The notes under the pieces: model-generated | The model's input: the letters and a program-made list of their open reading frames with translations, nothing else | Databases searched by the model: none | Told to the model about the DNA's origin: nothing | DNA from: Planctomycetales bacterium | GTDB taxonomy: Bacteria > Planctomycetota > Planctomycetia > Isosphaerales > Isosphaeraceae | NCBI GenBank assembly: GCA_027449865.1 | Contig: DAIDKV010000104.1 | Coordinates: forward strand, 1-47,840 | Reading direction: 5' to 3' | DNA length: 47,840 nucleotides | Program-made: the position numbers and the translations under genes | In this document: one piece after another, positions 4,963 to 27,686 of the stretch | How the letters are laid out: each line of letters begins with the position of its first letter | Numbering within the stretch: position 1 is the first letter of the stretch

Positions 4963-5309
4963 CTCTTGGCGGCCTGGGATGTCCGGACTTCGGCGTCCGC
5001 CCATTGCGATCCGAGAGGGATCGGGATGCCGGCGTCCCTGGAAGACCGCGGCCGACCTCGTCCGAGGTCTCCCGGCCGCCGCGGGGTCGATCGATCCCGC
5101 CAATTGGTCGCCGCTTGATCCAACCAGGTTCCCCCGAAATAATACGGGTGCACCCAGGGTCCGGGCATTTTGTCCTAACCCCATGGCGCACGGTAACGAT
5201 TCGATGGACACCTGGACGACGGGAAGAAGTCAAGTCGCCGCGCCTCGGCGAGGCGCTCGTTCGGTGTCGCCGGTTTCATCGACGTTCCCGCGGAGGGGAA
5301 AACAGGGCC
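4963..5309. other. pilB to pilT intergenic region
   Basis: There is no gene here. It contains a GC-rich hairpin (5044-5088) and a less GC-rich patch near 5135-5175. A Shine-Dalgarno GGAGGGG just before 5310 serves pilT. The length is unusual for a tightly packed operon and suggests an additional promoter or a processed leader. Confidence 0.4.
5044..5088 (+). other. Two-tier hairpin upstream of pilT
   Basis: The outer stem pairs CCGCGGC (5046-5052) with GCCGCGG (5078-5084). The inner stem pairs GACCTC (5054-5059) with GAGGTC (5064-5069) around a GTCC loop. No T-tract follows, so it is more likely an RNA-stability or attenuation element than a plain terminator. Confidence 0.4.
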
Positions 5310-8426: not shown

Positions 8427-8521
8427 GCCCTCGCCTCCGAACGGGGGCGACGGGCATTCGATCCGATTCCAAGGCCGCGACGGGCGACGGACAGAAGGAC
8501 CACCGGAGAAGGACAAGAGCC

Positions 8522-9816: not shown

Positions 9817-9902
9817 GTCCCTTCCCCCGAATGTTGACTCTCTTCCCGGGCTTGCCGCTCGAACGTGTGACGACCCCTGGTTGCCTTATGGTGGGAGGAC
9901 CG

Positions 9903-11162: not shown

Positions 11163-11302
11163 CCGGGCGCCCTCCGCGACACCCCGTGGACCGGTCCCGG
11201 GCCGGGCCTCGCGGAGACGGCCTTCGGAGATGGTCCGCACCGACCGCAACCCCCCGGAAGCCGGGCCCTGATACTCGTTCCTGGACCGACGCGAGGGCAG
11301 TC

Positions 11303-12961
11303 ATGAGCGATCGAATCCGAGAGACGGAACCCGAGACGCGGGCGGCGACGGACCTTCCCCTCGCCGTTCTCCGTGCAACCGTTCGCCGGGCGGGCCGCGG
11401 ATTCACTCTCGTTGAGCTGATGGTCGTGATGGTGATCATCGGCATCCTGTTGGCCTTCATCCTCAACGCCTCGATGAACTCGGTGAAGCGAGCCCAGGAG
11501 CGAGCCACCCAGACGCTCATCACCAAGCTCGAGGGGGGACTGAACGACCGGCTTGCCGCCCTGATGCAGCGTCGCCCCGAGCCGAACTCGGCGCACCTGC
11601 TGATGGGCTCGGTCTGGAACAGTGGAACCACCCAGCCGATGGCCGGCTTGCTTCGAGCTCAGGTGATCGCCTGGTACGACTACGTGAAGCGAGAAATGCC
11701 CGATACTTTCTTCGTTCAGAACACGAGCGGGCCCTACCCCCTCAATTTCGCCGCCAATCCGTATCCCCTGTCGGGCGGGACGCCGACCGACCCGAACGGC
11801 CTGGGACAATACATCTTGCCGATGGGTAATTCGATCGGCGGCCAGGTCGGCGCGACGGCCTACTTCTATGGGGACGGGAGTGGTTCCGGCTACAGTTCGA
11901 CGTCCACCGGCGGGTTGATGGAATACAACCCGTCCGGAATCGGGATTTATGGTGCCTCCTATCCCGTGGCCGCGGGGCTTTACAGAAACCTCGGCTATCT
12001 GCCCGCTGGCTACGACGGTGTCGACAACAACCAGAATGGGATGGTCGACGAGTGGCAGGAGGGCGTGACCGGCACGAACCAGGCACTGGTCCAGGCGAAC
12101 CTGGCGAACCACAAGCACATCACGGCCCGCTCTGAGATGCTTTACGCGGTCCTCGTCGAGGGCCAGGGGCCATTGGGCTCGGTCTTCAATCGGGACGAGT
12201 TCACCGATCGCGAGGTTCAGGACACCGATGGCGACGGCCTTCCCGAGTTCGTGGACGCCTGGGGAAACCCGCTCCAGTTCTTCCGGTGGCCCTTGCTCTA
12301 CCATTCCGGGCTCCAGCGTGGCCAGGTGCTCACGGCCGACGGAGCGGATTCCTGGACGCTGACCGCTCCCTTCGTCTCGATGTTTGAGCAGCGCGAACAG
12401 AACCCGATGGACGCGAATCAGCAGCTCGTGGCGCCGGCCTGGTGGTCGAATATGTACAACAACTCCTCGCCGATCGCGGGCTATCCCACGCCAGATAGTA
12501 GCATCCTCAGTGGGCCGGCTCAGGCGTTCGAGTATTACTTCCATCGCCTGGTCGAGCCCGTTCCCGGCGGTGGCGGGGCTTATTACTGGGATCGCGGCGC
12601 AATCTACGGGAGCCGGCGGGCCTTCTACTCGAAGTTTCTGGTCGCCTCCGGGGGGCTCGATGGCCAGCTTGGGATCTTCCTTTATTCCGACGCGGCCCTC
12701 AGTAGCCTGGGAACCAGGGCGGCGTGGGCCCTGATCGCCAACGAGAACAACGCGCTTCCCTTTAGCGTGACGGATACCTCGGGTGGGTTCACCGTCGATT
12801 TCACGAGCGCTGCGCATAACCAGTATTCGGCCACGCAAATCAATTACACCGAGTCGGACGAACCGTCGAATCCCTCGACGGGCCAGTTGCTCCAGGCGGC
12901 TGGCGACGACATCACCAATCAGAATATCCAGGTTACCGTCGGAATCGGAGGTGGCGGATGA
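11303..12961 (+). CDS. Large GspG-like pseudopilin 2
   Basis: A prepilin of 552 residues with a 33-residue leader ending GRG and then 'FTLVELMVVMVIIGILLAF' (F+1, E+5). The exported body has two acidic turn motifs: D241-N-N-Q-N-G-M-V-D, and D307-T-D-G-D-G-L-P-E-F-V-D followed by 'AWGNPLQFFRWP'. The rest is rich in Asn, Gly, Tyr and Pro. No enzyme signature is visible. It ends in an ATGA overlap with the next gene (ATG at 12958, stop 12959-12961), so the two are translationally coupled. By position it is a duplicate G-type pseudopilin; assignment to GspG rather than another minor class rests on the N-terminal helix and gene order. Confidence 0.82.
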   Translation: MSDRIRETEPETRAATDLPLAVLRATVRRAGRGFTLVELMVVMVIIGILLAFILNASMNSVKRAQERATQTLITKLEGGLNDRLAALMQRRPEPNSAHLLMGSVWNSGTTQPMAGLLRAQVIAWYDYVKREMPDTFFVQNTSGPYPLNFAANPYPLSGGTPTDPNGLGQYILPMGNSIGGQVGATAYFYGDGSGSGYSSTSTGGLMEYNPSGIGIYGASYPVAAGLYRNLGYLPAGYDGVDNNQNGMVDEWQEGVTGTNQALVQANLANHKHITARSEMLYAVLVEGQGPLGSVFNRDEFTDREVQDTDGDGLPEFVDAWGNPLQFFRWPLLYHSGLQRGQVLTADGADSWTLTAPFVSMFEQREQNPMDANQQLVAPAWWSNMYNNSSPIAGYPTPDSSILSGPAQAFEYYFHRLVEPVPGGGGAYYWDRGAIYGSRRAFYSKFLVASGGLDGQLGIFLYSDAALSSLGTRAAWALIANENNALPFSVTDTSGGFTVDFTSAAHNQYSATQINYTESDEPSNPSTGQLLQAAGDDITNQNIQVTVGIGGGG

Positions 12962-14385
12962 GGACGCGATCGCGTCGCCCGGGCGGATCGCAGGCCGCGA
13001 GCCGGGGCTTTACTCTGATCGAGCTGCTGGTGGTGATCTTTATCATCCTGCTCATCAGCGCGGTGGCCCTTCCGACCGTGCTTCCGGCGCTCAATCACCG
13101 TCAGGTCAGCGAGGCCGCGCGCATCTTGCAGGGAGCCCTGGTCGGAGCCCGCGACAAGGCGATTCACGACAATCAGCCCTGCGGCATCCGGCTCATGCCC
13201 GACCCGGCCTTTCCGCTCCAATGGGTCAATATTGGACAGTACGTTCAGGTCAACCCGTACAGTATCCTGGCCTACAATCGCGCCATCCCGCTCGAAGCGG
13301 CTCCTGAATATAGCGAAGGGAACTGTACTCCCTACACCCCGGGGAACATCAATTACCTGGCGAGCCTTGTGCCCCCGGTGACGATCACGATTCCTAGCGC
13401 CGTGCAGTCGCAATATCCCAGTTATCTGATCCTGCTGGAGAGTCTCGCCAATCCCAAGACGAGTGCCCCGAATTCGCCGACATCGTGGTACTGGAATATC
13501 CGGATCGGGGACAAGATTCAACTCAACAACTCCGGTCCCTGGTACACCGTCGCTGGGCCGATGATCCTCAATCAGGCGGGCGGAAATCCGGATGGATTTG
13601 TGAACGTCGGCCCTCCAGCAGCGATCAATCAATCCTCGTATGCTCCCCTGGTAGGGAACCAGCCTGTCGAATTCCTGATCCTGGTCAATGGGCGGGACGA
13701 CAACAACAACGGCTGGGTGGACGAGGAATTCGACGGAGTGGACAACAATAATGATGGTTATATCGATTTTCCTGTTCTGAGCGAACTCGAGAACGAGCAG
13801 TGGCTTGGCACGCTTGGTTCAGTGACGGGGCATGAGGTTAATGTCCCTTACACGATTCGCCGACGCCCGGCTCCCGCTCCGAACGCACGGGAGATCGCCC
13901 TTCCCACGGATATCGTGGTCGATGCCACCGCGTACAAGATGCCGAATACGCCGCATCCGGAGCGTTCGCGGCTGCCGGTCGATCTCTCTTCCGGCTACGT
14001 CGATATCATCATCAATCCCGATGGGACAGTGCTGCCGATCACGGCCTATAGCACACCAGCCTCGTTCCAGATGGGGAGCGCGTTCTATCACTTCTGGCTG
14101 GCCGAGCGGCAGGATCTGAACCCGGTCCAGGTGACGAGCAATGGCACGCCCCAGCCCTGGGCGCCGGGCGCTTCTTACTATCTGCCGATCGCGGAGCCGT
14201 CCAGTTCGTTCTCCAGCAACTTCCCGGGCCCCTATTTGAAGGGGGAATACGCGGTGCTGACGCTCTTCACCCGCACCGGGCAGATTGTGGTGAATTCGAG
14301 TCCTCCGTTCGTCAACCAGTTTGGCTACTATCACTCCGTGAACCCGTTCATCCAGGCCGAGCAGGGCGTGGTTGGGGGCCCTTGA
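12958..14385 (+). CDS. Large GspH/FimT-like pseudopilin
   Basis: A prepilin of 475 residues with a 17-residue leader ending SRG and then 'FTLIELLVVIFIILLISAV'. The segment after the helix, 'EAARILQGALVGARDKAI', is the GspH/FimT hallmark. Two tandem acidic loops, D248-N-N-N-G-W-V-D-E and D262-N-N-N-D-G-Y-I-D, lie 14 residues apart like paired EF-type or thrombospondin-type calcium sites. GspH normally has about 170 residues. Its start overlaps the stop of the preceding pseudopilin, and the next gene begins 3 bases after its stop. It should be a minor pseudopilin near the filament tip. Confidence 0.83.
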   Translation: MRTRSRRPGGSQAASRGFTLIELLVVIFIILLISAVALPTVLPALNHRQVSEAARILQGALVGARDKAIHDNQPCGIRLMPDPAFPLQWVNIGQYVQVNPYSILAYNRAIPLEAAPEYSEGNCTPYTPGNINYLASLVPPVTITIPSAVQSQYPSYLILLESLANPKTSAPNSPTSWYWNIRIGDKIQLNNSGPWYTVAGPMILNQAGGNPDGFVNVGPPAAINQSSYAPLVGNQPVEFLILVNGRDDNNNGWVDEEFDGVDNNNDGYIDFPVLSELENEQWLGTLGSVTGHEVNVPYTIRRRPAPAPNAREIALPTDIVVDATAYKMPNTPHPERSRLPVDLSSGYVDIIINPDGTVLPITAYSTPASFQMGSAFYHFWLAERQDLNPVQVTSNGTPQPWAPGASYYLPIAEPSSSFSSNFPGPYLKGEYAVLTLFTRTGQIVVNSSPPFVNQFGYYHSVNPFIQAEQGVVGGP

Positions 14386-14387
14386 CC

Positions 14388-15971
14388 ATGAGGAAACCAG
14401 TGGTCCGTGATCGATGGTCGGCGGCCTGTATCCCCTCGGGGCGGTCGCTGGCCGGTTCGGGCCTTCGGCCCGGGATCACACTGACCGAGATCCTGATCTC
14501 GATCATGATTCTCGGCATCGGCCTGATCTCGCTGGCGACGCTCTTCCCGATCGGCTTGCTCCGGCTCCGCGACGCGGCCCGATGGAGTCGCTCAGCCACC
14601 CTGATGGAGTCCGCGGCCTCCGACGCCATCGCGCGCGGGTTGCTTGGCAGTCATACGTTCTCGCAGGTGGATTTCCAGAATCAGATTCTGCACGGTCCGA
14701 ATGGCCCTTTCTGGTATCGCGATTCCAACCTCCAGCCTTATCACCCGATGGTTCAGGATACCGCCTCGTATCTGGGACCGGCCTTTGTCGTGAATAACGG
14801 GACCATCACCGGCCTTGTCGGTGCCAACGCCAATCCCTTCGCCACCACGCCGGCAAACGCGGCCAGTGCGAGCTTCCCGGGACTGCCGTTTGCCTACGAT
14901 CCGCTCTGGCGCTACTACACGGTTAACCCCAACTTTCCGCAGGCCAACGGCCCGGCGACCAACTTCGCACCCGGTGGTTATTACATCGGCGACTCGGGAG
15001 CTTATGAGGCAAGGTTCGGGTACGGACTGCCGAACCTCGGCGCATCGGCCAGCGCCCACGGTTTGCAACGGATCACGAACTTCAACCGCCCCTACGCCCC
15101 TTCGGGTTTGCCGGTCATGCCGACCTCGATGAATGTGCCGAACATCTTCGTCTCGCAGGAAGACGTGGTCTGGCAGGATGCCAACGTCAATACCTACACG
15201 CTCGGGGGCATTGCCGGCGGCCAGCCGGTGACCACGCCCAACCCGGTGCTCCCGGATCTCTCGCCCACCGTCGCCGAGGCCGCGTCGGGAATCAGTGGCG
15301 GGACGATCTCACTCGACTGGCGATACACCTGGATGTTCACCGGCCAGCTCGCCAGCGCCGGCAACCGCTCGGTGATCGACGGCAACATCGTCATCTTCGA
15401 GAATCGCCCGTTCGGGATCGGCCTGCCGACGAACACCAGCCCTCAGGTGACAGCGGGAAGCGGGCTCGATTACGAGGTCGCCGGCGAAACCGTGGTTGAG
15501 GGCGTCTTCGGGTACAGCGGAAACGTAATCCCCCAGGGCGGGCCTGGCTCGAGCGGTCCCGGCTATGGTGCCAGCGGCGATCGGACCGTGCTCCTCCGGT
15601 GGCCGACCACCCTGCCCGATCCGGTCGTCCGGCCCGGTGACTGGATCGCCGACGTTACGTATGAGCGCCATCAGGCCATCGTCCAGAGCCGGTTCCTCAA
15701 CGGAGTCGGCATGGGAGTGCCGAACTATGCCAACAAGGGCGAGTGGGACAACCTGCCGGCCCAGCGCTGCTTCTGGTATCGCGTGCAGAAGTCCACGCCG
15801 CCCGGCCCTGACCTCATCGTCGCCGGGACGCGATCGATGGTCGTCTACGTCAACCAGAACGTTCAGGCTCGAACCCTGCTGACCCAGGGCGGGGTGCCGG
15901 TCTACACCAACGCCGCGCTGATCTCCCCGAACGTCGTGAATGTGATCCCGCAGACGATCTTCGTCCGCTAG
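14388..15971 (+). CDS. Large GspI/PilV-like pseudopilin
   Basis: A prepilin of 527 residues with a 29-residue leader ending RPG and then 'ITLTEILISIMILGIGLISL' (isoleucine instead of phenylalanine at +1, E at +5). The segment continues 'ATLFPIGLLRLRDAARWSRS', typical of PilV/GspI-type minor pilins. The exported part is rich in Pro, Asn, Gly and Thr. No acidic calcium loop was seen, unlike its neighbours. An ATG three bases after the preceding stop was preferred to an in-frame TTG at 14382. GspI normally has about 120 residues. It is the fourth pseudopilin in the block. Confidence 0.8.
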   Translation: MRKPVVRDRWSAACIPSGRSLAGSGLRPGITLTEILISIMILGIGLISLATLFPIGLLRLRDAARWSRSATLMESAASDAIARGLLGSHTFSQVDFQNQILHGPNGPFWYRDSNLQPYHPMVQDTASYLGPAFVVNNGTITGLVGANANPFATTPANAASASFPGLPFAYDPLWRYYTVNPNFPQANGPATNFAPGGYYIGDSGAYEARFGYGLPNLGASASAHGLQRITNFNRPYAPSGLPVMPTSMNVPNIFVSQEDVVWQDANVNTYTLGGIAGGQPVTTPNPVLPDLSPTVAEAASGISGGTISLDWRYTWMFTGQLASAGNRSVIDGNIVIFENRPFGIGLPTNTSPQVTAGSGLDYEVAGETVVEGVFGYSGNVIPQGGPGSSGPGYGASGDRTVLLRWPTTLPDPVVRPGDWIADVTYERHQAIVQSRFLNGVGMGVPNYANKGEWDNLPAQRCFWYRVQKSTPPGPDLIVAGTRSMVVYVNQNVQARTLLTQGGVPVYTNAALISPNVVNVIPQTIFVR

Positions 15972-16107
15972 GTTTTTGACCCCCCATGGTCCGGCGCCTG
16001 TGGTCCGATGTCTCCGAAGCGGGGCGTGGGCCGGCGAGGCGATGGCCGGAACCGAGGAAACGCCAGGACCCGATCGGGAATCGCCCGAGCCAGGCTGGAG
16101 CGGAATC

Positions 16108-18306
16108 ATGGTCCTCCTTCGCCGCGATCGCAAGCCCAACGACAGCCGAGGCCGGAGAACGATCCGACCGAGCAGAAGAGGCTTCACCCTCGTCGAGATG
16201 CTCGTCACGGTGGCCGTGCTGGTCATCATGATGACGATCCTGGTGCAAATCTTCCAGGCGGCGACCGGGTCGGTCTCGGCGGCGCAGGCCTACCAGCAAC
16301 TCGACGACCAGCTTCGCCGGCTCGACGGCATCCTCCGGGCGGACCTCCGCGGAGCGACCGCCCACTTCACCCCGCCACTCGATCCCGAGTTGAACCTTGG
16401 CTACTTCGAGTATGGCGAGAATGAGTTTGCCGACAACCAGGGCGAGGATGGCGACGATTACGTTCGCTTCACGGCCAAGGCCCCGCCCGGTCGGCCGTTC
16501 ACCGGGAGGTTCTGGCCCGTGGTCTCGTCCAATGGAGTGACCACGTTCCTCGCCGGTAATTCCAACCTGGCAAGTTTTCCGATCACCATCACCAGCGACT
16601 ACGCCGAGATCATCTACTTCGTCCGCAACGGCAATCTCTATCGGCGTGTCCTGCTCATCGCGCCCGAGCTCCAGTCTTCGATCACACCGACGGTGAGCGG
16701 TGGCAATCTCCACAACGTCGCCTATCTGCCCGCTGGGGGCACATTCAACTTCCAGCCTCCGATCTTCGGCGCGCAGAGCGTGAGCTGGCAGGGGGTCAAC
16801 GATCTCTCGGCGCATCCCTCCCCGAGCGGCCCGGTTTCTGGGGCCTCGCTGCTCTCTCAGGCGCAGGGAACAATCGTCCTGAACACACTCGGGCACCTGA
16901 CCAACCGCGAGAACCGGGCTTTTTACTCGCGGTTCGCCAACGATTTCTTCGACGCCAACGGCGTCGCTGGCTCCGACGGTATTCCGGACGATCTCAACGG
17001 TGACAATATTCCCGACCTGTACCCGACGCTCTACCCGACGGTGTTCGCCAACACCGCTCTGATCAACGCCCCCGCGTATAACCTGAACTTGATCACGAAC
17101 ACGGGCGCGCTGAGCGCCCTGGCCTTCCCGTTTGTCTTCCCTGGCGCGTATTCCAAGGCACAGGCCGTCTCCACCGACGCCTACGGCTGGATCCACGCCC
17201 CGTCGCCCACCGCGAATGTCAATGGCTCGTTGGTCCAGTACGACACGAATCCGGCCGCCTACTTGCAGGCGCTGAACCATCACCCGGCGGAGATCGGCGA
17301 TAACCTGCCGACACCACTGAATCCGCCCGTGTCCTCGAATCTTCCCATGCTCCAGTCGTGGTGGGGTTTTCCCACCTGGCGTGAGACGCTCCCGGCGACC
17401 TGGGTCGATCCGACCTGGCAGGTCAATGTGAATAAACTACAGCCGCTGGGTCTGAATCCGGCCGAGATGGCGGTGTCCTCGGGCATCCTGACGACCAACG
17501 CGAACTTCACTCCCGGTTTCCTGCCTCCGACCACATCCATCGTCGGCGGCACCGATTACCTTGGGCTGCGATTCCCCAACGATATTTTTTCGGATCAGGC
17601 GGGGAACAACTCGGCCTTCATCAACCTGCCGAACTGGAATACGGGCACCACGCTCTGGCAGTTGAGCTGGGAAGACGACCTGATCATGTCGGGCGTTCGG
17701 AGCTTCGACGTCAAGGCCTTTGACAACGCCCTTCAGAATTATGCCGACCTGGGCTGGGGGGACGATCTTCGGGTCTATCCTCTGGGGCAGGTCAAGAATG
17801 TGCCGCCGTTCCTGGCGGGTAACCCCGATTATTCAACGAGCGGACTCATCTATCCCCCGCTCGCCTCCATCCAGAACCAGTATGTGGATTATATCAATCA
17901 CTCGTTCGCGCACGAGGGGCGGATGCCGCCGCTAATCCACGACAACCGCCTCGATTCCCAGTATCCGAATCCGAATTACGTGAATTACGCGAATTATGTC
18001 CCACAGTATGGGATCAACGCGAGTTACTCGAGCAACGTCGGCGACAACAGCAACGGAATCGTCCGGCTCCGGCGGGTCTGGGATTCGTGGTCGACGGATT
18101 ACAGCCGGGCTCCGGCCATCGGCGTGAACACCGTGGCGAACGGCTTCCCGGCCGGGCCGCCGTTTTCGCCGCCGATTTATCCGTCGTATCCGCCGCCTTA
18201 CCCGGCGCCCTTGCGAGGGATTCAGATTCAGGTTCGGGTGGTGGATCCGACGAACCAGCGGGTCAAGCAGCTCACCATCCGGCAGGACTTCACGGACAAG
18301 TTGTGA
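16108..18306 (+). CDS. Large GspJ/PilW-like pseudopilin
   Basis: A prepilin of 732 residues with a very basic 25-residue leader ending SRRG and then 'FTLVEMLVTVAVLVIMMTIL'. It continues 'VSAAQAYQQLDDQLRRLDGILRADLRG', which resembles the GspJ/PilW segment after the helix. A thrombospondin-3-like acidic stretch, residues 282-306, reads D-A-N-G-V-A-G-S-D-G-I-P-D and then D-L-N-G-D-N-I-P-D. The C-terminus 'GIQIQVRVVDPTNQRVKQLT' is a beta-rich ending typical of PilW/GspJ. The ATG at 16108 follows a GGAG; upstream in-frame starts give an implausible leader. GspJ normally has about 200 residues. Confidence 0.82.
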   Translation: MVLLRRDRKPNDSRGRRTIRPSRRGFTLVEMLVTVAVLVIMMTILVQIFQAATGSVSAAQAYQQLDDQLRRLDGILRADLRGATAHFTPPLDPELNLGYFEYGENEFADNQGEDGDDYVRFTAKAPPGRPFTGRFWPVVSSNGVTTFLAGNSNLASFPITITSDYAEIIYFVRNGNLYRRVLLIAPELQSSITPTVSGGNLHNVAYLPAGGTFNFQPPIFGAQSVSWQGVNDLSAHPSPSGPVSGASLLSQAQGTIVLNTLGHLTNRENRAFYSRFANDFFDANGVAGSDGIPDDLNGDNIPDLYPTLYPTVFANTALINAPAYNLNLITNTGALSALAFPFVFPGAYSKAQAVSTDAYGWIHAPSPTANVNGSLVQYDTNPAAYLQALNHHPAEIGDNLPTPLNPPVSSNLPMLQSWWGFPTWRETLPATWVDPTWQVNVNKLQPLGLNPAEMAVSSGILTTNANFTPGFLPPTTSIVGGTDYLGLRFPNDIFSDQAGNNSAFINLPNWNTGTTLWQLSWEDDLIMSGVRSFDVKAFDNALQNYADLGWGDDLRVYPLGQVKNVPPFLAGNPDYSTSGLIYPPLASIQNQYVDYINHSFAHEGRMPPLIHDNRLDSQYPNPNYVNYANYVPQYGINASYSSNVGDNSNGIVRLRRVWDSWSTDYSRAPAIGVNTVANGFPAGPPFSPPIYPSYPPPYPAPLRGIQIQVRVVDPTNQRVKQLTIRQDFTDKL

Positions 18307-18538: not shown

Positions 18539-21500
18539 ATGCTGGCCGGAACACGACACCAGACGCGAGAACGCCGGGGCGTCGTTTTGGTCCTGGTCCT
18601 GGGTATGCTTGGCCTGCTGGCCCTGATCGGGGTCATGTTCGCCACCTTCAGCGGCCAGGCGCGGATCAACGCGCGCAACTTTGCGGAGTCGGTCGTGCGC
18701 GCCCAGCGCGACGAACTGATGGATTTCGCCCTTCAGCAGTTGATCACCGACACCGCCGACGCCCGCTCCGTGATCCGCGGCCATAGCCTGGCACGCGACA
18801 TGTTCGGCAACGACGCGGTCTACAACGGCCAACTGACGTCCATCCCTGGTGTGGGCCCGTGCCAGATCACGGCTCCGCTTCAGCCCATCACTAATGGAAA
18901 TGTCATCGTGGGCTACTACGTCGTGACCAACATCCCGACCCCGAACCTTAACTCGGCGATGTACGGTTACGACTTCACGCGGTGGACGATGCGGGTCAGC
19001 TATGTCGGCCCGTTCACGCCTCCCCAGGGCAATAGCCCCTATCCACCCAGCCCGTATCCGGTCAGCCAGACGTTCGAGATCGTGCAGGACGATTACGGCC
19101 AGCTCGGGGCCTACTCCACGCCGCTGAGCAACGGGAACTACCACGTCTTCCGGATCGCCCCGTACGACGCACAGACGGTTCTCAATAATCCGACGCTCGG
19201 CTACATCACCACCAATCCCATCAACCCCTTCCCGGGCTGGCCCGCCGGAACTGTCAACGCGACCCAGATGGCGCTCAACTACGCCTTGAACGGAGCCGGT
19301 CTGGGGAATCTCACGTTCACGCTCGACGGCCGATGGCTCCACGCCTTCAACGGCCAGGGGATGGGGTCGCTGAACGTCTCCTGGCCAGTCCCCAGCCTCA
19401 ACTCCAACACCACGAACCCGCTTTCGACCTACGGCAATTTCCGCTACAACGCCCCTCTGCTTCAGGCGGCGGGAGTGCAATTCAATCCGAACTCACCCCT
19501 CGTGCTGACCGGCCCGGACTCCCTCGGGATGGACGAGGATTACGATTCCTGCGACCTCGAGAACTGGTTTCTGGCGATCCAGAGCGCCGATGGCCAGGTG
19601 ATCATCCCTTCGTTCCACCGTCCGGCGATCATTCGATACGATCCCAGTAATCCCAACACGAACCTCCAGGCCAACGACTGGGGGCTGACCAGTAGTGGCG
19701 CCAACTTCCGGGCCCTGCAGGGCGCGGACTCGATGGCCCGAATTCTCCGGCCAGTCGCCGCCGACGGCCACGATCAGCTAGCGTTCAAGGACCTGACCCC
19801 CGACCCGAACACCGGTAAGATCACGTACGACGTCGATAACGATGGCGACGGTGTGACCGACTCGGTCTGGCTCGATCTTGGCTATCCGGCCCGCCGCGAC
19901 TCCGCCGGCAACCTCTACAAGCCGCTGTTCTCCTTCATGGTGATTGGGCTGAACGGTCGCATCCCGTTGAACACGGCCGGCAACCTCGCTGGCGGCGGCG
20001 TCACCCACGCCCAGCACCTGGGGAACTCCGTCAGCGAGATCGACCCGCAGTACGGCCTGCAAAACGCCTACGTGCCGGCCACGGATGCCGATCCCTTCAA
20101 CCAGTATCTCAAGGGCCTGGGGTCCGTGGGATGGGCCGGGCCGAACGGCGCCAATCCGACCGCCAACACCCAGGTCGACAACTCGATTGGTGCGACGAGT
20201 GGTGTCTACCAGTCGATCGATGTCCGCCTGACCCAACTCCGCAACCTTCTGGCCGGTACCCGGCCGCAGGTCAACCCGGCTCAGCCGGACACATCGGGTA
20301 CGATTAATGGGGATACGAATCTCGTCTGGGGCTCGTTCTCCGGTCGGGGGGCTGGTTCCGCCTATGCCTTCCCGAACAGCATGGCCGACCTCAACGACGT
20401 GCCGGTCTCGTCGTTCCCTGGCCCCAACAACACCACCCTTCCACTGGTCCAGCGCACCACGTCGCCCGTGCCTGGACGCTGGGGCGAGGCGCCGATGATC
20501 CCCGGTGTCCCCTTCGCGACACAGAATGCCACCGCTCCCGCGGGCCTCGTTCAGCCGTTCTACGCGAACCCCGTTCGCGCCGGCTATTCGTTCGACATGG
20601 TCGACCTGCTGAATAACCTGACCTACAACCCGACGCTGTACCCGTTCCCCCGCGAGGCGGCCGACGACGATAACAATGCATTCGATGTCTACCCGCCGCG
20701 GCTTCTCGGCGAGGTCGGCGATGCCGACTATTACGACTCCGCCGGGGCTCTGATTCTGCCAGTCGAGCGGATGCGGCGGTTCGTCACTCCGGTGGACATC
20801 AACGGGACCGGCTCGGTCCGCCAGTGGGCCTACACCGTGAACGCAGGGGCAGCCGCGCCGATCGGCCGGAACCGAGGCCCCGATCTCTTCGGCCGCGTCC
20901 AGTTCAACAGTTACTTCCGTCCCGCCGGTTCCCCGGGCGCGATCAACATCACCTCCCCGTTCCCCAACCTCGCCAACCTGACCCCAACCACGCCCAACGA
21001 GTCTCCCTACGGCTCGATCGCCGGGGCAAATCCCACGACTCCGGGCGGGAGCGTGACAAATGCCACGAATCCGGGCGTGTTTGGGAACTGGTACAACGGG
21101 GCGGCAACTCCTCTGATCTCCGGGAATCCCTACGTCCCCGACGTGACGAACAACCCGTTCCACGGCTTCGAGTGGAACCGGATGCCCAACAATAACCAGA
21201 TCCCCGGCGTCTCGACGACAGCACCGGCCGCGACCCCGTATTCGGCCGCCACCCTGGGAGGTGTTCCGGTCTATTCGCCGAGCACGTCCGCGACCGTTCC
21301 GCCCCCGCAGTATCCGCCCACGACCTGGCCCACCTATGGGATGTCCGCCGTCGTTCTCGGAAACGGAACCGACTCAATCGTTCGCTCCGACGGCCTCAAC
21401 GAGGCCGACGAGATGAACCTCTACACGCCCAATCCGCTCCTCGATTCGCCCTATGGCCCCAGCGACCTCGAATGGCTCTACCGTCTCCAGGACGTCGACG

Positions 21501-24500
21501 GGGCCAGCCTCACCAGTCGGCTCTCGCAACTCGCCCCGGTGAGCTTCACGAACACAATCGACGGCCAGCGACGACGTCGGCTTTACTCGACCGATACCTG
21601 GGAGTCGAGCCAGTTCGTCTGGACCCCCGACAATCCCGGCGGCAATTTCACGAATAACAGCTACTTCAGCCCCGTGCCGGCGATCTACACGGTCAATCCC
21701 TCGGGGCCTCCCGGAGCCCTTACGGATACCTCGAACGCCAGTTTCGGCAGTCTCAGCGCCATTCGGTCCCTGGCCAATGGCGGCCTGGTCAATCCCGCCA
21801 ATTTCGTGTTCCTCAATGGCCCCTCGCTGGCCCACCGTGGCAAGAAGATCAACCTCAATTATCCGCTCCCCGTCTCGAACGATCCCAATGAGCCTGTCCG
21901 ACAGAAGTGGATCAGCGATACCTATCAGTTCCTCAAGGTGATCCTGCCCCCGACCTCGGTCGATTCGCCCGAGGAACTGGCGCAGCTTAGCCAGTTCGTG
22001 ATCAACATCATCGACTTCCGCGACCCCGACGCGACCATGACGCACTGGGTCAACCCGGAAGTTTTCATCTCGCCAGGTTCGCAGCAGACTCTCGCAAACG
22101 GGACCACCGTGTACACGAATCCGGTTTTGACCTCCCTAACCTACGGTGGGGCAGTACCCGGCAGCATACCACTCGATCAGTACGGCATGGAATACTGCCC
22201 CGTCGCGATCAACGAGGTGCTGGCGTATCAGTATTACAGTCTCCAGTCGGGCCAGGCGTTGACCAGCGCCACGCCGACGAACCGCTTCTTCATCGAGCTG
22301 GTGAACACGCAGACGGCGGCCTACAACCCCGGATTCGATACCACCAACCTGTCCGACCCAAATAACTACTATGGCTACGGCCCCACCAACCAGAATGGCA
22401 ATCAGTTGCCGCTGAATGGAAACACGCCGGGCCCGCCCCAGCAGGCCAGCACGCTCGATCTGGGCGGCTTTACCTATGTCCAGCCGGCCAACGGCCTCGT
22501 CGATCCCTACGGCGCTGGCTGCTGGGACCTCGTCTTCACCGCCGACAACGCGATGGCGCGCCCCGATCCCTACCGGGGAGAGCTCAGCAACCCCGTCCTC
22601 CTCGGAAACCAGGCGACGCCCATCACGACCTACAGCCTGATCCCGCTGAACCGGGACGCGATGGGGACCGGTGTGAATAACTACACATCGCCCAACGGCG
22701 GGGACGTCACCCTGTTGCCCATGAGCCCGACCGGCATCGCCGATCCGACGCTCCCTCCGATGGCCACTCCGATTAACCAGACGACCCCACCGACGACCTA
22801 TTTCTACGTGATCGGAAATCAGCCCACGACCATCAGCGAGAATAATCCCTACTCCACCACCTCCTCGATCGCCAACCAGCCGCCACCTGTCACCCAGTTC
22901 CTGGCACCGTCGTTCGACCCGATGATCAATTCGGGTTCGAAGACCGCGACTATCTGGTGGCGGCCGGGCATGTTGCCGGGCGTTCAGGGGACCACCCCCG
23001 GATCGTACCAGCCCCCGCCGAACTACCAGCAGGGCTTGCAGATTTCGGCCGCGAACGGAGCGACGGCCGGTCCAGCCCAGTTCTTCTGGGTCTGCCTGCG
23101 ACGGCCGGCCAACCCGTTCGCTCCCGTCTCGCAATACAACCCGATGTGCGTGGTCGACTCGATGAGGTTCCCGTTTATCAATGGTTCTCCGGCCCTGACC
23201 ACCCAGAACTGGACGAATGCCAACGGGAACTGGACCGCCAACGGGGCGGTCAATACGATCTACTCCGCCCAGCGATTGCAGCCCTACCGGGGCGGTCACG
23301 CGGTTCCCATGCCCAACGCCACGGCGAGCGGGGGTCAGGTCACAACCAACCAGCCGCCGGATCCGCGTTACGGATATACCGAGCAGACCGCTTACCCGCA
23401 GCTTTCGACCATAAATCCGATCTTCAACTACGCCCTGGCGAACGCGGGTGGTAGTACCTCGAAGGTCGCGTCGACCAACACGATTTACCAGACGCTCGGA
23501 TATCCCAACAGTAGCGCCGAGAACTGGGACTATTTCCCGTTCAACGATCGCGATTTCTCCAGCGTGGCCGAACTCCTTCTGGTTCCGGGATGTCCACCAG
23601 GCCTGTTCACCAAGCAGTTCGTCGAGTTCGCGCCCTCGCAGATGAACGCGGCCAACATCTTCGGCGCCGTCACACCGATCATCACACCGAGCTTTTCCGC
23701 CGCGCTAACCCAGGGCGGGAATTCCACCCAGCCACTCTCTTCCCCGACACCGTTCGCCACCGCCACGCTGCCGTTCCCGTCGGTCTCGTACCTTACCGCG
23801 ACCACTGCGATCGGCAGTAATCCTTCGTCGCAGGGAGGGCTGCCGACGACATCGGTCCCGCCGTTCAGCTCGCTTCCGACCGTGTATGGTCAGCCCGGGA
23901 CCTCGCAGAATACGACCGTCCCTACCGTCCCCGCGCCTGAGCAGCCCCACGCCTTCCCGTACCTGGTGGACAAGTTCTTCTACACGGGGGCCTCGACCTT
24001 CTATTACACGCCGAATGGGGCTCAGATGGATCCGGGGTCGGTGAGTCTCCTTCCTGCCAGCCGCGTACCGGTCGTCGGCGGGCCCGGCGGCGATGGCTGG
24101 TTCAAGATGTTCGAGTTCTTCGAGGTTCCCAGCCAGTCCGCGGGCTCGATCGGCACGGTCGCCCAGGGGTCGAATTTCGACTGGGCCCGCCAGGACCTCA
24201 AACCGGGCCTGATGAACGTCAACCTCCTCATCGATGAGGAGGCCTTCTTCGGCATCTTCGGTAGCGAGGACGGCTCCTACAATCAGAACCTGCTCAACTC
24301 CATCGAGCTGCCGCTTCTCGCCACTCTCAATACCAGCGGTGCGCTGACCCTTCCGTACAACATGCCGTTGTCGCAGAACAATTACTACAACTCCGTGAAC
24401 ACCATCGGCAATCCGCCAATCCCGACGAACGGCCCGCCGGTGCCGCTGGTTGTCAGTGCCTCGCAAATTTACGGGGCGCCCAACTACGCCTACCCGATCA

Positions 24501-26176
24501 CCGACCAGACGCAGTACGTCGAGCACGGCTATCTCGCCGGGACCGACCCGATCTCCAACGCCCTTCAGCGGGCCGCCGGAACCGCGATACCGGCGCCCGG
24601 AAACCGGATCAAGGCCGCGTTCGCTCAGTTCCTCTGGGCACGACACGGCGGGTCGGGCTACGTCTTTGGATTCGGCAATGGCGTCACTGGGCAGAATAGC
24701 GCGGTCGCCACGCAGGCGCTGGCCTCGGCGGGCTACTCTCAGGCGACGCCGATGGAGCGGCCATTCCACTCGCTCTCCTATCCGGACATCGACCAGACCA
24801 TCATGCGGCCCGCCGCGTTGCCGCCCTCGTCCCACAGCAACCCGGCGATTCTGGTCGATCCCAACAACGTTCTCCCGCCGAGTGTGTACAACGCCCAGGC
24901 GCTGCAATACCAGCCGACAACGGCATCGGCGTCCGCCTGGTATCTCCAGACATCGCTGGCGGCGACGGCCCTGCCGACCTACTACGCCCCTTACGTCGTC
25001 GCCAGCGGTACCGTCTCACCAAGCAACTACTTCACCGGGAACTACGCGAATTATCCGGTTGTCTATACGGGCGATCCGGGTGTCCGCAATCCCTACCTGA
25101 ATACGGGCTACGTTTCGAGTTACATCGCGCCGTCGACCCCAACCAACACCCCGCCGACCGTGACCGCCACGCCGCCTTATCCGGTCTACCTGCCGATCAC
25201 CGTACCCAGTCCTCTCAATAACACCACGAATAGCCAGTACTCCGTACCACCCGGCGTTCCGCTGCCGACGAACGTCGCCTTCCCCATGGGCGGCGCCACA
25301 CCACCGACGCAGGATAGCGTGGTGATGCCTCCGCCCATCCCGGCCGCACGGTTGTTCCAGATCCCCGACTTCTACGGCTACGGTCAGATGCAGGCGAACA
25401 TGTACATGGGGATCATCAACAACAACGGAACCGGCCAGGGCAACCTGCCGCCCGCGGTCAGCAACGCCGGCGATTCCGGCGACCCGTGGATCAACAACCA
25501 GGTCGCCAATCAGTGGGGGGGATTGAACCCGTACCTCAACACGGCGACGAACACTCCCACTCCGAACATGAACAGCTACCCGAGTTCCAGCTACACGCTG
25601 AATAACGGGTTTGTCAGCCTTCCCTGGTCTGGCGGGACCAATTACTATCCAAATGGGCCTGCCGCTCCCTATGTTCCCGCGACCGGTGCACTGCCGCCGA
25701 CGGGTATCAATTACGCGCCATACAGCGTCAATACGGGCGCGCTGCCGGCCCTCTGGTATTTCAACAACGCCCCGCTGTTCGGAACCATCACCAACCCGCC
25801 CAACGGCCCATATCTTGGGGCCAACGAGGCGGCTGGGAGCATCGCACCGATAAGAATGGACCGCCGCCAGCACCCGTACTGGCGGACGGAGATGCTTCAA
25901 AAGGCGATGAACCTGACGACGGTCCGAACCCATCAGTACGCGGTCTGGATCACGGTGGGATTCTTCCAGGTCAAGCGGCAAGGGGATATCGCCATGCTCG
26001 CCACGAACATGAGCCTGGCCTTCGATATTCTGGGCCCCGAGCTGGGCGCCCTCGACGGGAAGAACATTCGTTATCGCGGCTTCTTCATCGTGGACCGGCT
26101 GAAGCTCACCGGCTTCAATCCTGGCGACGTCGGAGCTTTCCACAAGGCGGTCATCTATCGGAGTGTGATCGAGTAG
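18539..26176 (+). CDS. Giant GspK/PilX-like minor pseudopilin (about 2545 residues)
   Basis: The leader MLAGTRHQTRERRG is followed by 'VVLVLVLGMLGLLALIGVMF'. This is a prepilin-type helix without Glu+5, as in GspK and PilX proteins that cap the filament tip. Next comes 'QARINARNFAESVVRAQRDELMDFALQQL', consistent with GspK. An acidic loop D433-N-D-G-D-G-V-T-D with a DVDND lead-in precedes 'GLNGRIPLNTAGNLA'. The following roughly 2000 residues are rich in Asn, Pro, Thr, Tyr, Gln and Gly, with few Lys or Cys, and no obvious tandem repeat or enzyme motif. The final 110 residues ('MDRRQHPYWRTEMLQKAMN' to 'AVIYRSVIE') look more globular. GspK normally has about 330 residues. Last of the E-to-K ordered block, it is probably a very large exported tip or adhesive protein. 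The frame is uninterrupted over 7.6 kb. Confidence 0.8.
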   Translation: MLAGTRHQTRERRGVVLVLVLGMLGLLALIGVMFATFSGQARINARNFAESVVRAQRDELMDFALQQLITDTADARSVIRGHSLARDMFGNDAVYNGQLTSIPGVGPCQITAPLQPITNGNVIVGYYVVTNIPTPNLNSAMYGYDFTRWTMRVSYVGPFTPPQGNSPYPPSPYPVSQTFEIVQDDYGQLGAYSTPLSNGNYHVFRIAPYDAQTVLNNPTLGYITTNPINPFPGWPAGTVNATQMALNYALNGAGLGNLTFTLDGRWLHAFNGQGMGSLNVSWPVPSLNSNTTNPLSTYGNFRYNAPLLQAAGVQFNPNSPLVLTGPDSLGMDEDYDSCDLENWFLAIQSADGQVIIPSFHRPAIIRYDPSNPNTNLQANDWGLTSSGANFRALQGADSMARILRPVAADGHDQLAFKDLTPDPNTGKITYDVDNDGDGVTDSVWLDLGYPARRDSAGNLYKPLFSFMVIGLNGRIPLNTAGNLAGGGVTHAQHLGNSVSEIDPQYGLQNAYVPATDADPFNQYLKGLGSVGWAGPNGANPTANTQVDNSIGATSGVYQSIDVRLTQLRNLLAGTRPQVNPAQPDTSGTINGDTNLVWGSFSGRGAGSAYAFPNSMADLNDVPVSSFPGPNNTTLPLVQRTTSPVPGRWGEAPMIPGVPFATQNATAPAGLVQPFYANPVRAGYSFDMVDLLNNLTYNPTLYPFPREAADDDNNAFDVYPPRLLGEVGDADYYDSAGALILPVERMRRFVTPVDINGTGSVRQWAYTVNAGAAAPIGRNRGPDLFGRVQFNSYFRPAGSPGAINITSPFPNLANLTPTTPNESPYGSIAGANPTTPGGSVTNATNPGVFGNWYNGAATPLISGNPYVPDVTNNPFHGFEWNRMPNNNQIPGVSTTAPAATPYSAATLGGVPVYSPSTSATVPPPQYPPTTWPTYGMSAVVLGNGTDSIVRSDGLNEADEMNLYTPNPLLDSPYGPSDLEWLYRLQDVDGASLTSRLSQLAPVSFTNTIDGQRRRRLYSTDTWESSQFVWTPDNPGGNFTNNSYFSPVPAIYTVNPSGPPGALTDTSNASFGSLSAIRSLANGGLVNPANFVFLNGPSLAHRGKKINLNYPLPVSNDPNEPVRQKWISDTYQFLKVILPPTSVDSPEELAQLSQFVINIIDFRDPDATMTHWVNPEVFISPGSQQTLANGTTVYTNPVLTSLTYGGAVPGSIPLDQYGMEYCPVAINEVLAYQYYSLQSGQALTSATPTNRFFIELVNTQTAAYNPGFDTTNLSDPNNYYGYGPTNQNGNQLPLNGNTPGPPQQASTLDLGGFTYVQPANGLVDPYGAGCWDLVFTADNAMARPDPYRGELSNPVLLGNQATPITTYSLIPLNRDAMGTGVNNYTSPNGGDVTLLPMSPTGIADPTLPPMATPINQTTPPTTYFYVIGNQPTTISENNPYSTTSSIANQPPPVTQFLAPSFDPMINSGSKTATIWWRPGMLPGVQGTTPGSYQPPPNYQQGLQISAANGATAGPAQFFWVCLRRPANPFAPVSQYNPMCVVDSMRFPFINGSPALTTQNWTNANGNWTANGAVNTIYSAQRLQPYRGGHAVPMPNATASGGQVTTNQPPDPRYGYTEQTAYPQLSTINPIFNYALANAGGSTSKVASTNTIYQTLGYPNSSAENWDYFPFNDRDFSSVAELLLVPGCPPGLFTKQFVEFAPSQMNAANIFGAVTPIITPSFSAALTQGGNSTQPLSSPTPFATATLPFPSVSYLTATTAIGSNPSSQGGLPTTSVPPFSSLPTVYGQPGTSQNTTVPTVPAPEQPHAFPYLVDKFFYTGASTFYYTPNGAQMDPGSVSLLPASRVPVVGGPGGDGWFKMFEFFEVPSQSAGSIGTVAQGSNFDWARQDLKPGLMNVNLLIDEEAFFGIFGSEDGSYNQNLLNSIELPLLATLNTSGALTLPYNMPLSQNNYYNSVNTIGNPPIPTNGPPVPLVVSASQIYGAPNYAYPITDQTQYVEHGYLAGTDPISNALQRAAGTAIPAPGNRIKAAFAQFLWARHGGSGYVFGFGNGVTGQNSAVATQALASAGYSQATPMERPFHSLSYPDIDQTIMRPAALPPSSHSNPAILVDPNNVLPPSVYNAQALQYQPTTASASAWYLQTSLAATALPTYYAPYVVASGTVSPSNYFTGNYANYPVVYTGDPGVRNPYLNTGYVSSYIAPSTPTNTPPTVTATPPYPVYLPITVPSPLNNTTNSQYSVPPGVPLPTNVAFPMGGATPPTQDSVVMPPPIPAARLFQIPDFYGYGQMQANMYMGIINNNGTGQGNLPPAVSNAGDSGDPWINNQVANQWGGLNPYLNTATNTPTPNMNSYPSSSYTLNNGFVSLPWSGGTNYYPNGPAAPYVPATGALPPTGINYAPYSVNTGALPALWYFNNAPLFGTITNPPNGPYLGANEAAGSIAPIRMDRRQHPYWRTEMLQKAMNLTTVRTHQYAVWITVGFFQVKRQGDIAMLATNMSLAFDILGPELGALDGKNIRYRGFFIVDRLKLTGFNPGDVGAFHKAVIYRSVIE

Positions 26177-26214
26177 TGCGTTGTCGAGAGAACCGCGGGC
26201 GCTGGGGATGCGAG

Positions 26215-26233
26215 GCCCCGCGACCCGCGGGGC
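26215..26233 (+). terminator. GC hairpin after the giant pseudopilin gene
   Basis: A perfect 8-bp stem pairs GCCCCGCG with CGCGGGGC around ACC, 38 bases after the stop. No T-run follows. It may end or attenuate the long pseudopilin transcript before the DUF1559 gene. Confidence 0.4.
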
Positions 26234-26360
26234 GGCGCCTCCCGGGTGGTTCCGGACGGCCCGCGGAGGACGCGCAGCGGGCCCGTCGAGCCTTGTCGCC
26301 AGCCCGTCGGCGCGGTTAGAATTGGATCCAGGCCACTTCCCTATTGCGAAAGGACCGATC

Positions 26361-27686
26361 ATGAGATCCCGACGTCGCCGCCGTGGCTTCACCCTGATCG
26401 AACTGCTGGTGGTGATCAGCATCATCGGCATCCTGGTCGGGCTCCTGCTGCCCGCCATCAACGCCGCCCGTGAGGCGGGCCGCCGCACTCAGTGCGCCAG
26501 CAACATGCGCAACATCGGTCTGGGCATTCTCGGCTACGTCAATAGCAAGAACGCCTTCCCCGCCGCCGGTACCTTCGGCGAGAATCCCAAGTCCCTCTCG
26601 CTGACCAACCCGATGTCGTCCACGATTTATGGCTTTCTTCCCAAAAGCACCACGCCTGCCGCCGGCATCCCGATGTATAGCTGGGTCGTTCCGACCCTCC
26701 CCTACCTGGACAACCAGGAACTCTTCAATCAGTGGACGATGTTCTCCACGGGCGTCAGCAACGGCGTATCCGGGTTGCCCGTCTCCTACGCGGACACAAC
26801 CAACTACGTGAAAGGCCAGGCCTCCAATGCTACAATTGCCAACACGGCGATCGGAATCCTTCGTTGTCCGGACGACAACACGACGCAGCCCAACCAGGGA
26901 AATCTGAGTTACGCGGTCAACGGTGGCTTCGCGCTCTGGCACGCCATCCCCACGAGCCTGGTCGGCCACCAGAGTGACGGCGCCCAGATCCCTCAAATGA
27001 TGACCTGGACCGCCACTGCGTCGACCAGCACCGTCGACGCGGCCACTATCGGTGTGATGCAGAAGCTTGGTGTCTTCTTCCTCCAGTCGGTCCTCCCCCA
27101 GGGAATGGGCACGAATGTGAATGTCCCCTGGAACATCCGATCGACCCTCACGGGGATCTCGGACGGGGCCAGCAGCACCCTGATGCTCAGCGAGAACACG
27201 CTGACCGGCTTCGCGAGTTCCAACCCGTTCTTTAGCGGCGGCGGCACCTACGAGGGGAACTGGGCCGCCCCCCAGCCGACCCTCAGCATGTTCATCGGCT
27301 CCTCCGCGATCTGCAGTAGCGCCGGCTACTCGTGTTACAGCAATCCTCCCTCGCCTGCCCTGCTCGCTCCGACCAGTTCGATGGGTGCAGGCGGCTCGAG
27401 CGGCGATCAGGACGGAGCGGGCTGGCAGGGTGCCAACCACGTGGGAACCTTCGAGAACATCAACTTCGCTCAGACGGCCGGCCTTTCGGTCGAGGGCTCG
27501 TTCCCGTTCTCGAACAGCGGCCACCCCGGCGGCTGCAACATGATGTTCTGCGACGGCGCGGTTCGGTTCATCACCAACACGATCGACGGCACCGTCTACG
27601 CGAAGCTGCTCACCCCCGCGGGCAGCCGGCTCCCACTCTACTGCAAGCAGATGCCGCTCTCGCAGGACGCGTTTGTCAGCCAGTAA
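26361..27686 (+). CDS. DUF1559 prepilin-like protein (H-X9-DG family)
   Basis: A protein of 441 residues of the planctomycete/verrucomicrobial DUF1559 family, which occurs in many copies per genome. The 9-residue leader MRSRRRRRG is followed by 'FTLIELLVVISIIGILVGLL' and 'LPAINAAREAGRRTQCASNM', the family signature. Near the C-terminus, 'GHPGGCNMMFCDGAVRFI' is the H-X9-DG motif. The protein should be processed by prepilin peptidase and displayed at the cell envelope; the family's function is unknown. AAAGGA precedes the ATG at 26361. It follows the giant pseudopilin and is followed by a strong terminator, so it closes the block, possibly from its own promoter. Confidence 0.92.
   Translation: MRSRRRRRGFTLIELLVVISIIGILVGLLLPAINAAREAGRRTQCASNMRNIGLGILGYVNSKNAFPAAGTFGENPKSLSLTNPMSSTIYGFLPKSTTPAAGIPMYSWVVPTLPYLDNQELFNQWTMFSTGVSNGVSGLPVSYADTTNYVKGQASNATIANTAIGILRCPDDNTTQPNQGNLSYAVNGGFALWHAIPTSLVGHQSDGAQIPQMMTWTATASTSTVDAATIGVMQKLGVFFLQSVLPQGMGTNVNVPWNIRSTLTGISDGASSTLMLSENTLTGFASSNPFFSGGGTYEGNWAAPQPTLSMFIGSSAICSSAGYSCYSNPPSPALLAPTSSMGAGGSSGDQDGAGWQGANHVGTFENINFAQTAGLSVEGSFPFSNSGHPGGCNMMFCDGAVRFITNTIDGTVYAKLLTPAGSRLPLYCKQMPLSQDAFVSQ

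What the first reader, a model, noticed from the sequence alone, without database searches (positions are those of the whole stretch)
18539..26176. Pseudopilin-type protein of about 2545 residues
A continuous 7.6-kb frame starts with a prepilin-peptidase-type leader and a Glu+5-lacking helix as in GspK/PilX tip proteins. It is several times larger than any GspK I know. The bulk has a low-Lys, high Asn/Pro/Thr/Tyr composition with no enzyme motif, and the last 110 residues look globular. A giant protein at the filament tip could be an adhesin, substrate-capture arm or pore plug.
Basis: partly seen in the sequence, partly recalled or inferred. Interest (0 to 1): 0.8.

Follow-up and report, generated by a model that had tools for sequence, protein, structure and literature searches.

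The report
Giant GspK-like pilus-tip protein
A planctomycete bacterium makes a 2,545-residue version of the small protein that normally caps the tip of type II secretion/type IV pilus filaments; almost every member of its class carries one such giant gene, always in the same filament operon, so it is a real and probably important surface or envelope part that no annotation database recognises.

Summary
Window 18539-26176 is one uninterrupted frame of 2545 residues with a prepilin leader (RRG|VVLVLVLGML), no Glu at +5 and an almost lysine-free bulk. It is not a fused-gene artefact: 39 of 40 sampled genomes of the class carry it as one large ORF (about 1400-2909 aa), essentially single-copy, with dN/dS 0.3-0.5 along the whole gene. 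It is the last pseudopilin of a conserved operon (GspE, PilT, GspE, GspF, then G-, X-, H-, I-, J-, K-type pseudopilins and a DUF1559 pseudopilin), the canonical T2SS order.

No curated model detects it. Short relatives in other planctomycete classes (771-1020 aa) match T2SSK, NCBI GspK and "Verru_Chthon cassette protein A"; profile comparison links them to the giants (E=5e-22) and to canonical GspK (E=3e-12). I conclude it is a GspK-type tip pseudopilin swollen by about 1,440 residues of Pro/Asn/Thr/Tyr-rich inserts and probably a lamin-tail-like domain. Partners H, I and J are enlarged too.

Tip location, export and ligand binding are inferred. AlphaFold models were too poor to use (pLDDT 31-36). 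I rate it a new variant of a known kind.

The parts
18539..26176 (+). giant GspK-type pseudopilin gene, 2545 aa
18539..18580 (+). prepilin (class III) leader, residues 1-14, predicted cut after Gly14
   Evidence: two A24 prepilin peptidases over cut-off in the genome
18581..18688 (+). N-terminal hydrophobic pilin helix (residues 15-50), Leu instead of Glu at +5
   Evidence: Alignment; hhalign to GspK E=1.4e-6; AF2 gives a long helix, low confidence
19532..19624 (+). conserved block DEDYD...IPSFHRP (residues 332-362)
19829..19987 (+). core block 1: DxDxDG acidic loop then GspK-like 'FMVIGLNGRIPLNTAGN' (residues 431-483)
   Evidence: class giants vs intermediates E=5.3e-22; phylum search with this block
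21845..22042 (+). core block 2: KINLN...NIIDFRDPDATMT (residues 1103-1168), aligns with GspK profile stretch 105-164
22184..22306 (+). GMEYxPVAINE followed by the start of a lamin-tail-like domain 'FIELVN' (residues 1216-1256)
   Evidence: Invariant E1253, N1256; LTD Pfam match at the same place in intermediate L109 (E=1.3e-10)
23543..23620 (+). core block 3: DRDFSSVAELLLVPGCPPGLFTKQF (about residues 1669-1694), aligns with GspK profile 173-196 (EL-V-G motif)
24203..24277 (+). core block 4: PGLMNVNLLIDEEAFFGIF (residues 1889-1913), aligns with GspK INVNTA..VL motif
24818..25852 (+). largest lineage-specific Pro/Asn/Thr/Tyr-rich insert (residues 2094-2438)
25853..26173 (+). conserved C-terminal domain (residues 2439-2545), probable last pseudopilin strands
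   Evidence: low-confidence strands in AF2 of L101
3232..4962 (+). GspE/PilB-type assembly ATPase 1
   Evidence: Pfam T2SSE 2.2e-135
5307..6422 (+). PilT-type retraction ATPase (start codon approximate)
   Evidence: By sequence; conserved in relatives
6711..8426 (+). GspE/PilB-type assembly ATPase 2
   Evidence: Pfam T2SSE 4.8e-135
8522..9766 (+). GspF/PilC platform protein
   Evidence: Pfam T2SSF 1.4e-67
9831..11162 (+). GspG-like pseudopilin, 443 aa
   Evidence: TIGR01710 1.7e-12, N-terminal part only, below cut-off
11186..12961 (+). second G/H-like pseudopilin ('X'), 591 aa; carries DNNQNGMVDE loop
12958..14385 (+). GspH-like pseudopilin, 475 aa; carries DDNNNGWVDE loop
   Evidence: TIGR01708 1.7e-12, below cut-off
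14382..15971 (+). GspI/PilV-like pseudopilin, 529 aa
   Evidence: TIGR02523 and TIGR02598 weak; operon position
15976..18306 (+). GspJ-like pseudopilin, 776 aa
   Evidence: TIGR02599 5.6e-6, TIGR01711 0.005; operon position
26181..27686 (+). DUF1559 (SBP_bac_10) pseudopilin with H-X9-DG tail
   Evidence: Pfam 6.8e-32, TIGR04294 3.1e-9

Best explanation
The gene encodes the K subunit (GspK-type minor pseudopilin) of the core type IV-filament/T2SS-like machine of these planctomycetes. It is cut by prepilin peptidase, anchored by its Glu5-less helix, joins the enlarged I and J subunits in the tip complex, and starts and caps the filament. Its pilin and alpha-domain core has been split by about a dozen low-charge, Pro/Asn/Thr/Tyr-rich insertions (about 1,440 of 2,545 residues) and probably a lamin-tail-like domain. 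These make a very large tip head. The operon also encodes two GspE-type assembly ATPases and a PilT-type retraction ATPase. The most likely use is therefore as an extendable and retractable filament whose outsized head touches and holds an extracellular surface or polymer. Shown: leader, operon order, conservation, selection, and sequence relationship to GspK through intermediates. Inferred: cleavage, tip position, passage of the head through a secretin, retraction, and ligand binding.
For: Glu5-less prepilin leader in aligned homologues. Gene order GspE-PilT-GspE-GspF-G-X-H-I-J-K-DUF1559 is conserved across the class. No canonical GspK over cut-off elsewhere in the genome. Relatives of 771-1020 aa match T2SSK (8.2e-10, over cut-off), NCBI GspK (4.7e-11) and Verru_Chthon A (1.2e-8). 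Giants vs intermediates E=5.3e-22; intermediates vs canonical GspK E=3.2e-12. GspK internal motifs found in order; best internal scores 29.5 and 31.2 against at most 20.5 in 40 column shuffles and 16 for the reversed profile. Essentially one copy per genome in 39 of 40 genomes of the class. dN/dS 0.3-0.6 in every slice. J and K lengths rise together (Spearman 0.87, n=20, not corrected for kinship). Secretins and prepilin peptidases are present in the genome.
Against: The window protein itself matches no GspK, pilin or Verru_Chthon model. Individual internal GspK matches are weak (P 0.02-0.3). AlphaFold models are unusable (mean pLDDT 35.6 and 31.0), so the pilin fold and SAM-like domain are not shown. 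No secretin lies in the operon. The surface-binding role rests on analogy alone.
Confidence: 0.68

Rival explanations
1. It is GspK of a true secretion pseudopilus that stays in the (large) planctomycete periplasm: the giant head is a plug or cargo-engaging piston head below or in the secretin, not an external adhesin.
For: Operon order is that of T2SS genes G-H-I-J-K; the G, H and J subunits match T2SS models below cut-off; secretins exist elsewhere in the genome. DUF1559 pseudopilins are a heavily expanded protein family in planctomycetes (PMC8567305).
Against: A PilT-type retraction ATPase lies in the operon across the class, which is typical of type IV pili rather than T2SS (established knowledge).
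Confidence: 0.2
2. It is a surface adhesin that merely borrowed a prepilin leader (a 'modular pilin') and is not a GspK orthologue.
For: Modular pilins with grafted modules are widespread and can be adhesins (PMC8179133). The window protein has no significant match to GspK models.
Against: GspK-like motifs run through the whole length in GspK order rather than lying in one pilin module with an appended domain. Intermediates carry both GspK and family signatures. The C-terminal block is conserved across the class and into other classes.
Confidence: 0.1
3. Sequencing or assembly artefact, or chance open frame joining several genes.
For: High GC gives many long overlapping open frames. One relative (L099) has the gene in two pieces, probably a frameshift.
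Against: Dozens of independent genomes carry one long frame with conserved ends, and selection is purifying along the full length.
Confidence: 0.01

Closest known systems
GspK / T2SS minor pseudopilin (PF03934, PF21687, NF037980; E. coli GspK, XcpX)
   Same: Glu5-less prepilin leader, place after I and J in the operon, collinear internal motifs (N-x-N, D-x-D, EL-V, NxN), C-terminal strand block
   Different: About 8 times longer; about 1,440 residues of inserts and a probable lamin-tail-like domain; scores below every GspK model; PilT in the operon
Verru_Chthon cassette proteins A-D (TIGR02600, TIGR02598, TIGR02599, TIGR02596)
   Same: A large prepilin-leader protein in a cassette with smaller pseudopilins; intermediate relatives match A (1.2e-8), and window H, I, J weakly match D, B, C
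   Different: The A model is 1296 positions and, by its name, was described from Verrucomicrobia; the window protein does not match it; no hit in 149 sampled planctomycete genomes passes its cut-off
Modular pilins (S. sanguinis PilB and PilC; survey in PMC8179133)
   Same: A large extra module carried by a minor pilin, probably at the filament tip
   Different: The survey's most extreme case with multiple extra domains was an 860-residue protein; here material is inserted into a GspK-type core rather than appended
Planctomycete 'giant genes' >5 kb (PMC5352709, PMC5177795)
   Same: This 7.6-kb gene belongs to that size class (26 and 36 per genome in P. borealis and S. acidiphila)
   Different: Those are listed mostly without function; here an identity can be given

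Membership tests
GspK (T2SS minor pseudopilin K) | Prepilin leader and hydrophobic helix without Glu at +5 | tested here: met
GspK (T2SS minor pseudopilin K) | Encoded next to I and J in a G-H-I-J-K operon with GspE/F | tested here: met
GspK (T2SS minor pseudopilin K) | Sequence relationship over the alpha-domain and C-terminal strands | tested here: inconclusive
   Collinear weak matches above shuffles; strong only through intermediates
GspK (T2SS minor pseudopilin K) | Score over the curated cut-off of PF03934, PF21687 or NF037980 | tested here: not met
   No hit for the window protein; met for relative L108 (PF03934 39.3 bits)
GspK (T2SS minor pseudopilin K) | Pilin fold with inserted SAM-like alpha-domain | tested here: inconclusive
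   AF2 mean pLDDT 35.6 and 31.0
GspK (T2SS minor pseudopilin K) | Binds GspI/GspJ at the pseudopilus tip; binds calcium | not testable with these tools
   -
Verru_Chthon cassette protein A (TIGR02600) | Score over 332.3 bits to the model | tested here: not met
   No hit for the window protein; none of 149 planctomycete genomes passes
Verru_Chthon cassette protein A (TIGR02600) | Large prepilin-leader protein encoded with B, C, D-type pseudopilins | tested here: met
   H, I, J match TIGR02596, TIGR02598 and TIGR02599 weakly, below cut-offs
Modular pilin | Pilin module with a grafted, separable functional domain | tested here: inconclusive
   Probable LTD inside (in L109; 0.032 and 0.11 in class members); not appended

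The most novel reading that the evidence does not exclude
The giant K, with its enlarged H, I and J partners, forms the substrate-catching tip of the 12-nm pili-like fibres that leave planctomycete crateriform structures and bind dextran (PMC5394234), whose proteins are unknown. PilT retraction would then reel bound polymer towards the periplasm: a polysaccharide-uptake pilus.
Probability: 0.13. Interest if true: 0.85.

Novelty: new variant of a known kind. Interest (0 to 1): 0.58.

Why it matters
Planctomycetes have many giant genes without function and a filament that binds polysaccharide whose proteins are unknown. This work assigns one class-wide, essentially single-copy giant gene to the tip subunit of their core type IV-filament operon, and gives a named operon to knock out. 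It also shows a natural size series for one protein, from ~330 aa in canonical GspK to 770-1020 aa and then 1400-3200 aa in planctomycetes. That series could show what the poorly understood alpha-domain of GspK tolerates and does.

Tried and rejected
Artefact or fused genes: rejected by homologues and selection. Direct Pfam, NCBIfam and PDB searches with the giant or its profile: nothing. Canonical GspK elsewhere in the genome: none over cut-off; the two best PF03934 hits are a helix-hairpin-helix (ComEA-like) protein (L037) and a protein kinase (L038), neither a GspK. AlphaFold of residues 1-1200 and of the last 1194 residues of a shorter relative (L101): mean pLDDT 35.6 and 31.0, so no fold search was run on them. 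EF-hand-like loop search: the strict pattern is absent from K but present in H and X; the K loop DVDNDGDGVTD lacks the last acidic ligand position, so calcium binding is only a possibility. Taking the first ATG (18473) as start: rejected because homologues begin at the equivalent of 18539. Note on circularity: the block-1 search used sequence from intermediates L106-L109 in its model, so their own scores there are not independent; searches are.

Full report
OBSERVATION. The frame 18539-26176 (+) is continuous over 2545 codons. It opens with MLAGTRHQTRERRG followed by VVLVLVLGMLGLLALIGVMFATF, a prepilin-peptidase-type leader with Leu at +5. A purine-rich stretch precedes the ATG, and homologues start at the equivalent Met. 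Composition is as described: Pro 11.1 %, Asn 8.6 %, Thr 8.7 %, Lys 0.8 %. Splitting the protein against relatives outside the family gives about 1,100 core residues and about 1,440 inserted residues. The inserts are almost free of Lys (0.1 %), Cys (0.1 %) and Glu (0.9 %) and rich in Pro (13.5 %), Thr (10.4 %) and Asn (10.0 %).

REALITY OF THE GENE. The window lies in an 8.5-Mb genome whose named best relatives are planctomycetes of the family Isosphaeraceae: Singulisphaera acidiphila, Paludisphaera soli and Isosphaeraceae MAGs. Relatives carry it as one long frame with the same leader. A profile of the C-terminal domain finds one copy each in 38 of 40 sampled genomes of the class, in ORFs of 1560-2909 aa. 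A profile of core block 1 finds it in 39 of 40; only one of these has a second match, a short partial one. The same block finds further copies in other classes, mostly in ORFs of 771-3237 aa. dN/dS by Nei-Gojobori is 0.3-0.6 in every 400-codon slice, 0.32-0.52 overall. It is therefore a real, selected, essentially single-copy gene.

NEIGHBOURHOOD. In the window the order is GspE (3232), PilT (about 5307), GspE (6711), GspF (8522), GspG-like (9831), a second G/H-like pseudopilin (11186), GspH-like (12958), GspI-like (14382), GspJ-like (15976), the giant (18539) and a DUF1559 pseudopilin (26181). The same order, with the giant directly after the I/J-type genes, recurs across the class wherever the contig reaches far enough. 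That is the canonical gspG-H-I-J-K order, seen for comparison in E. coli K-12, where the annotated genes give G, H, I, J and K of 145, 169, 125, 195 and 327 residues. In the window, H, I and J have 475, 529 and 776 residues, so the whole tip set is enlarged. J and K lengths rise together across 20 loci (Spearman 0.87; related sequences, so not a formal test). In another class (L107) the other pseudopilins are near-canonical (160, 224, 215 residues) while K is already 894 aa.

IDENTITY. No Pfam, NCBIfam or PDB sequence matches the giant. The genome has no canonical GspK over cut-off. Three lines lead to GspK. (a) Aligned homologues show, in order, the N-helix, 'NGRxxLNTAGN', 'KINLN...DFRDPD...GMEY', 'DFSSVAELLLVPG' and 'PGxxNLNxxxDEEAF', then a C-terminal block. 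An HMM-HMM comparison with canonical-size GspKs (E. coli and planctomycete) matches these to the corresponding GspK stretches in the same order. The best internal scores are 29.5 and 31.2, against at most 20.5 in 40 column-shuffled profiles and 16 for the reversed profile. (b) Relatives of 771-1020 aa from other classes match PF03934 (L108, 8.2e-10, over cut-off), NF037980 GspK (L109, 4.7e-11), HHH_3 and, in L109, a lamin-tail domain (1.3e-10, over cut-off). (c) A profile of these and two larger outgroup relatives matches the class-wide giant profile at E=5.3e-22 and canonical GspK at E=3.2e-12. The two links run partly through different blocks, so this is homology at gene level rather than residue by residue. 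The lamin-tail start 'FIELVN' sits at the same place in the giant (E1253 and N1256 are invariant), but Pfam scores there are weak (0.032 and 0.11).

STRUCTURE. Two AlphaFold jobs with 13-14 sequence alignments gave mean pLDDT 35.6 (window residues 1-1200) and 31.0 (last 1194 residues of L101). Only parts of the first ~210 residues (a long helix, then strands) reach 50-67. These models neither support nor refute the fold, and no fold search was made with them.

MECHANISM. From established knowledge of T2SS and type IV pili: GspK lacks Glu5, binds I and J, and sits at the tip (PMC8179133 and PMC6211770 summarise this; the function of its alpha-domain is unclear). The conserved PilT next to two GspE-type ATPases points to a filament that can retract. 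The best-supported reading is a giant tip head on such a filament, exposing low-charge inserts to a surface or polymer. Cleavage, tip position, export and binding are inferred. The closest rival is a periplasmic pseudopilus with an outsized piston head.

CONTEXT AND NOVELTY. NCBIfam already holds 'Verru_Chthon cassette protein A' (1296 positions), a large prepilin-leader protein encoded with three smaller pseudopilins. It is the nearest named kind, and intermediate L109 matches it at 1.2e-8. No hit in 149 planctomycete genomes passes its cut-off, and the hits cover only the N-terminus, mostly of large ORFs. I found no paper using that name. A survey of modular pilins named an 860-residue protein as its most extreme multi-domain case (PMC8179133). 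Giant genes (>5 kb, up to 60 per planctomycete genome) are well known but largely unexplained (PMC5352709). Pili-like fibres on crateriform structures bind dextran, and the paper names no protein for them in the passages read (PMC5394234). I therefore call this a new variant of a known kind. The novelty lies in its size, its class-wide single-copy conservation, the co-enlargement of H, I and J, and the PilT-containing operon. It is not a categorically new machine.

Noticed in passing
G377:C2:188403-188534 and G365:C19:30364-30495: Members of the same family in another planctomycete lineage lie in 3237- and 2682-aa open frames, larger than the window's.
   Followed up: no
L067, L068, L069, L073, L077-L080, L083, L084: Other planctomycete classes hold 960-1790-aa open frames, several with a prepilin leader, with a GspK-type 'INVNTAP..VL' motif near residue 280-420 and a quite different C-terminus: apparently a second kind of giant GspK-like protein, sometimes several per genome.
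   Followed up: partly
window 12958-14382 and 11186-12958: The H- and X-type pseudopilins carry EF-hand-like loops (DDNNNGWVDE, DNNQNGMVDE; 0.006-0.014 expected by shuffling), and K carries DVDNDGDGVTD: possible calcium sites in the tip set.
   Followed up: partly
window 3232-9766: Two GspE-type ATPases flank a PilT-type ATPase upstream of T2SS-ordered pseudopilins; this mixed T4P/T2SS layout is conserved across the class.
   Followed up: yes
L109 3119-5431 (-), residues 402-501: A lamin-tail domain sits inside a GspK-like pseudopilin, directly after the alpha-domain motif.
   Followed up: partly
L099 8916-15804: In one MAG the gene is split into two frames (867 and 1501 aa), probably an assembly frameshift.
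   Followed up: no
window 28514-30514: A 666-aa protein with a weak alpha/beta-hydrolase (PGAP1-like) match lies downstream; function unclear.
   Followed up: no
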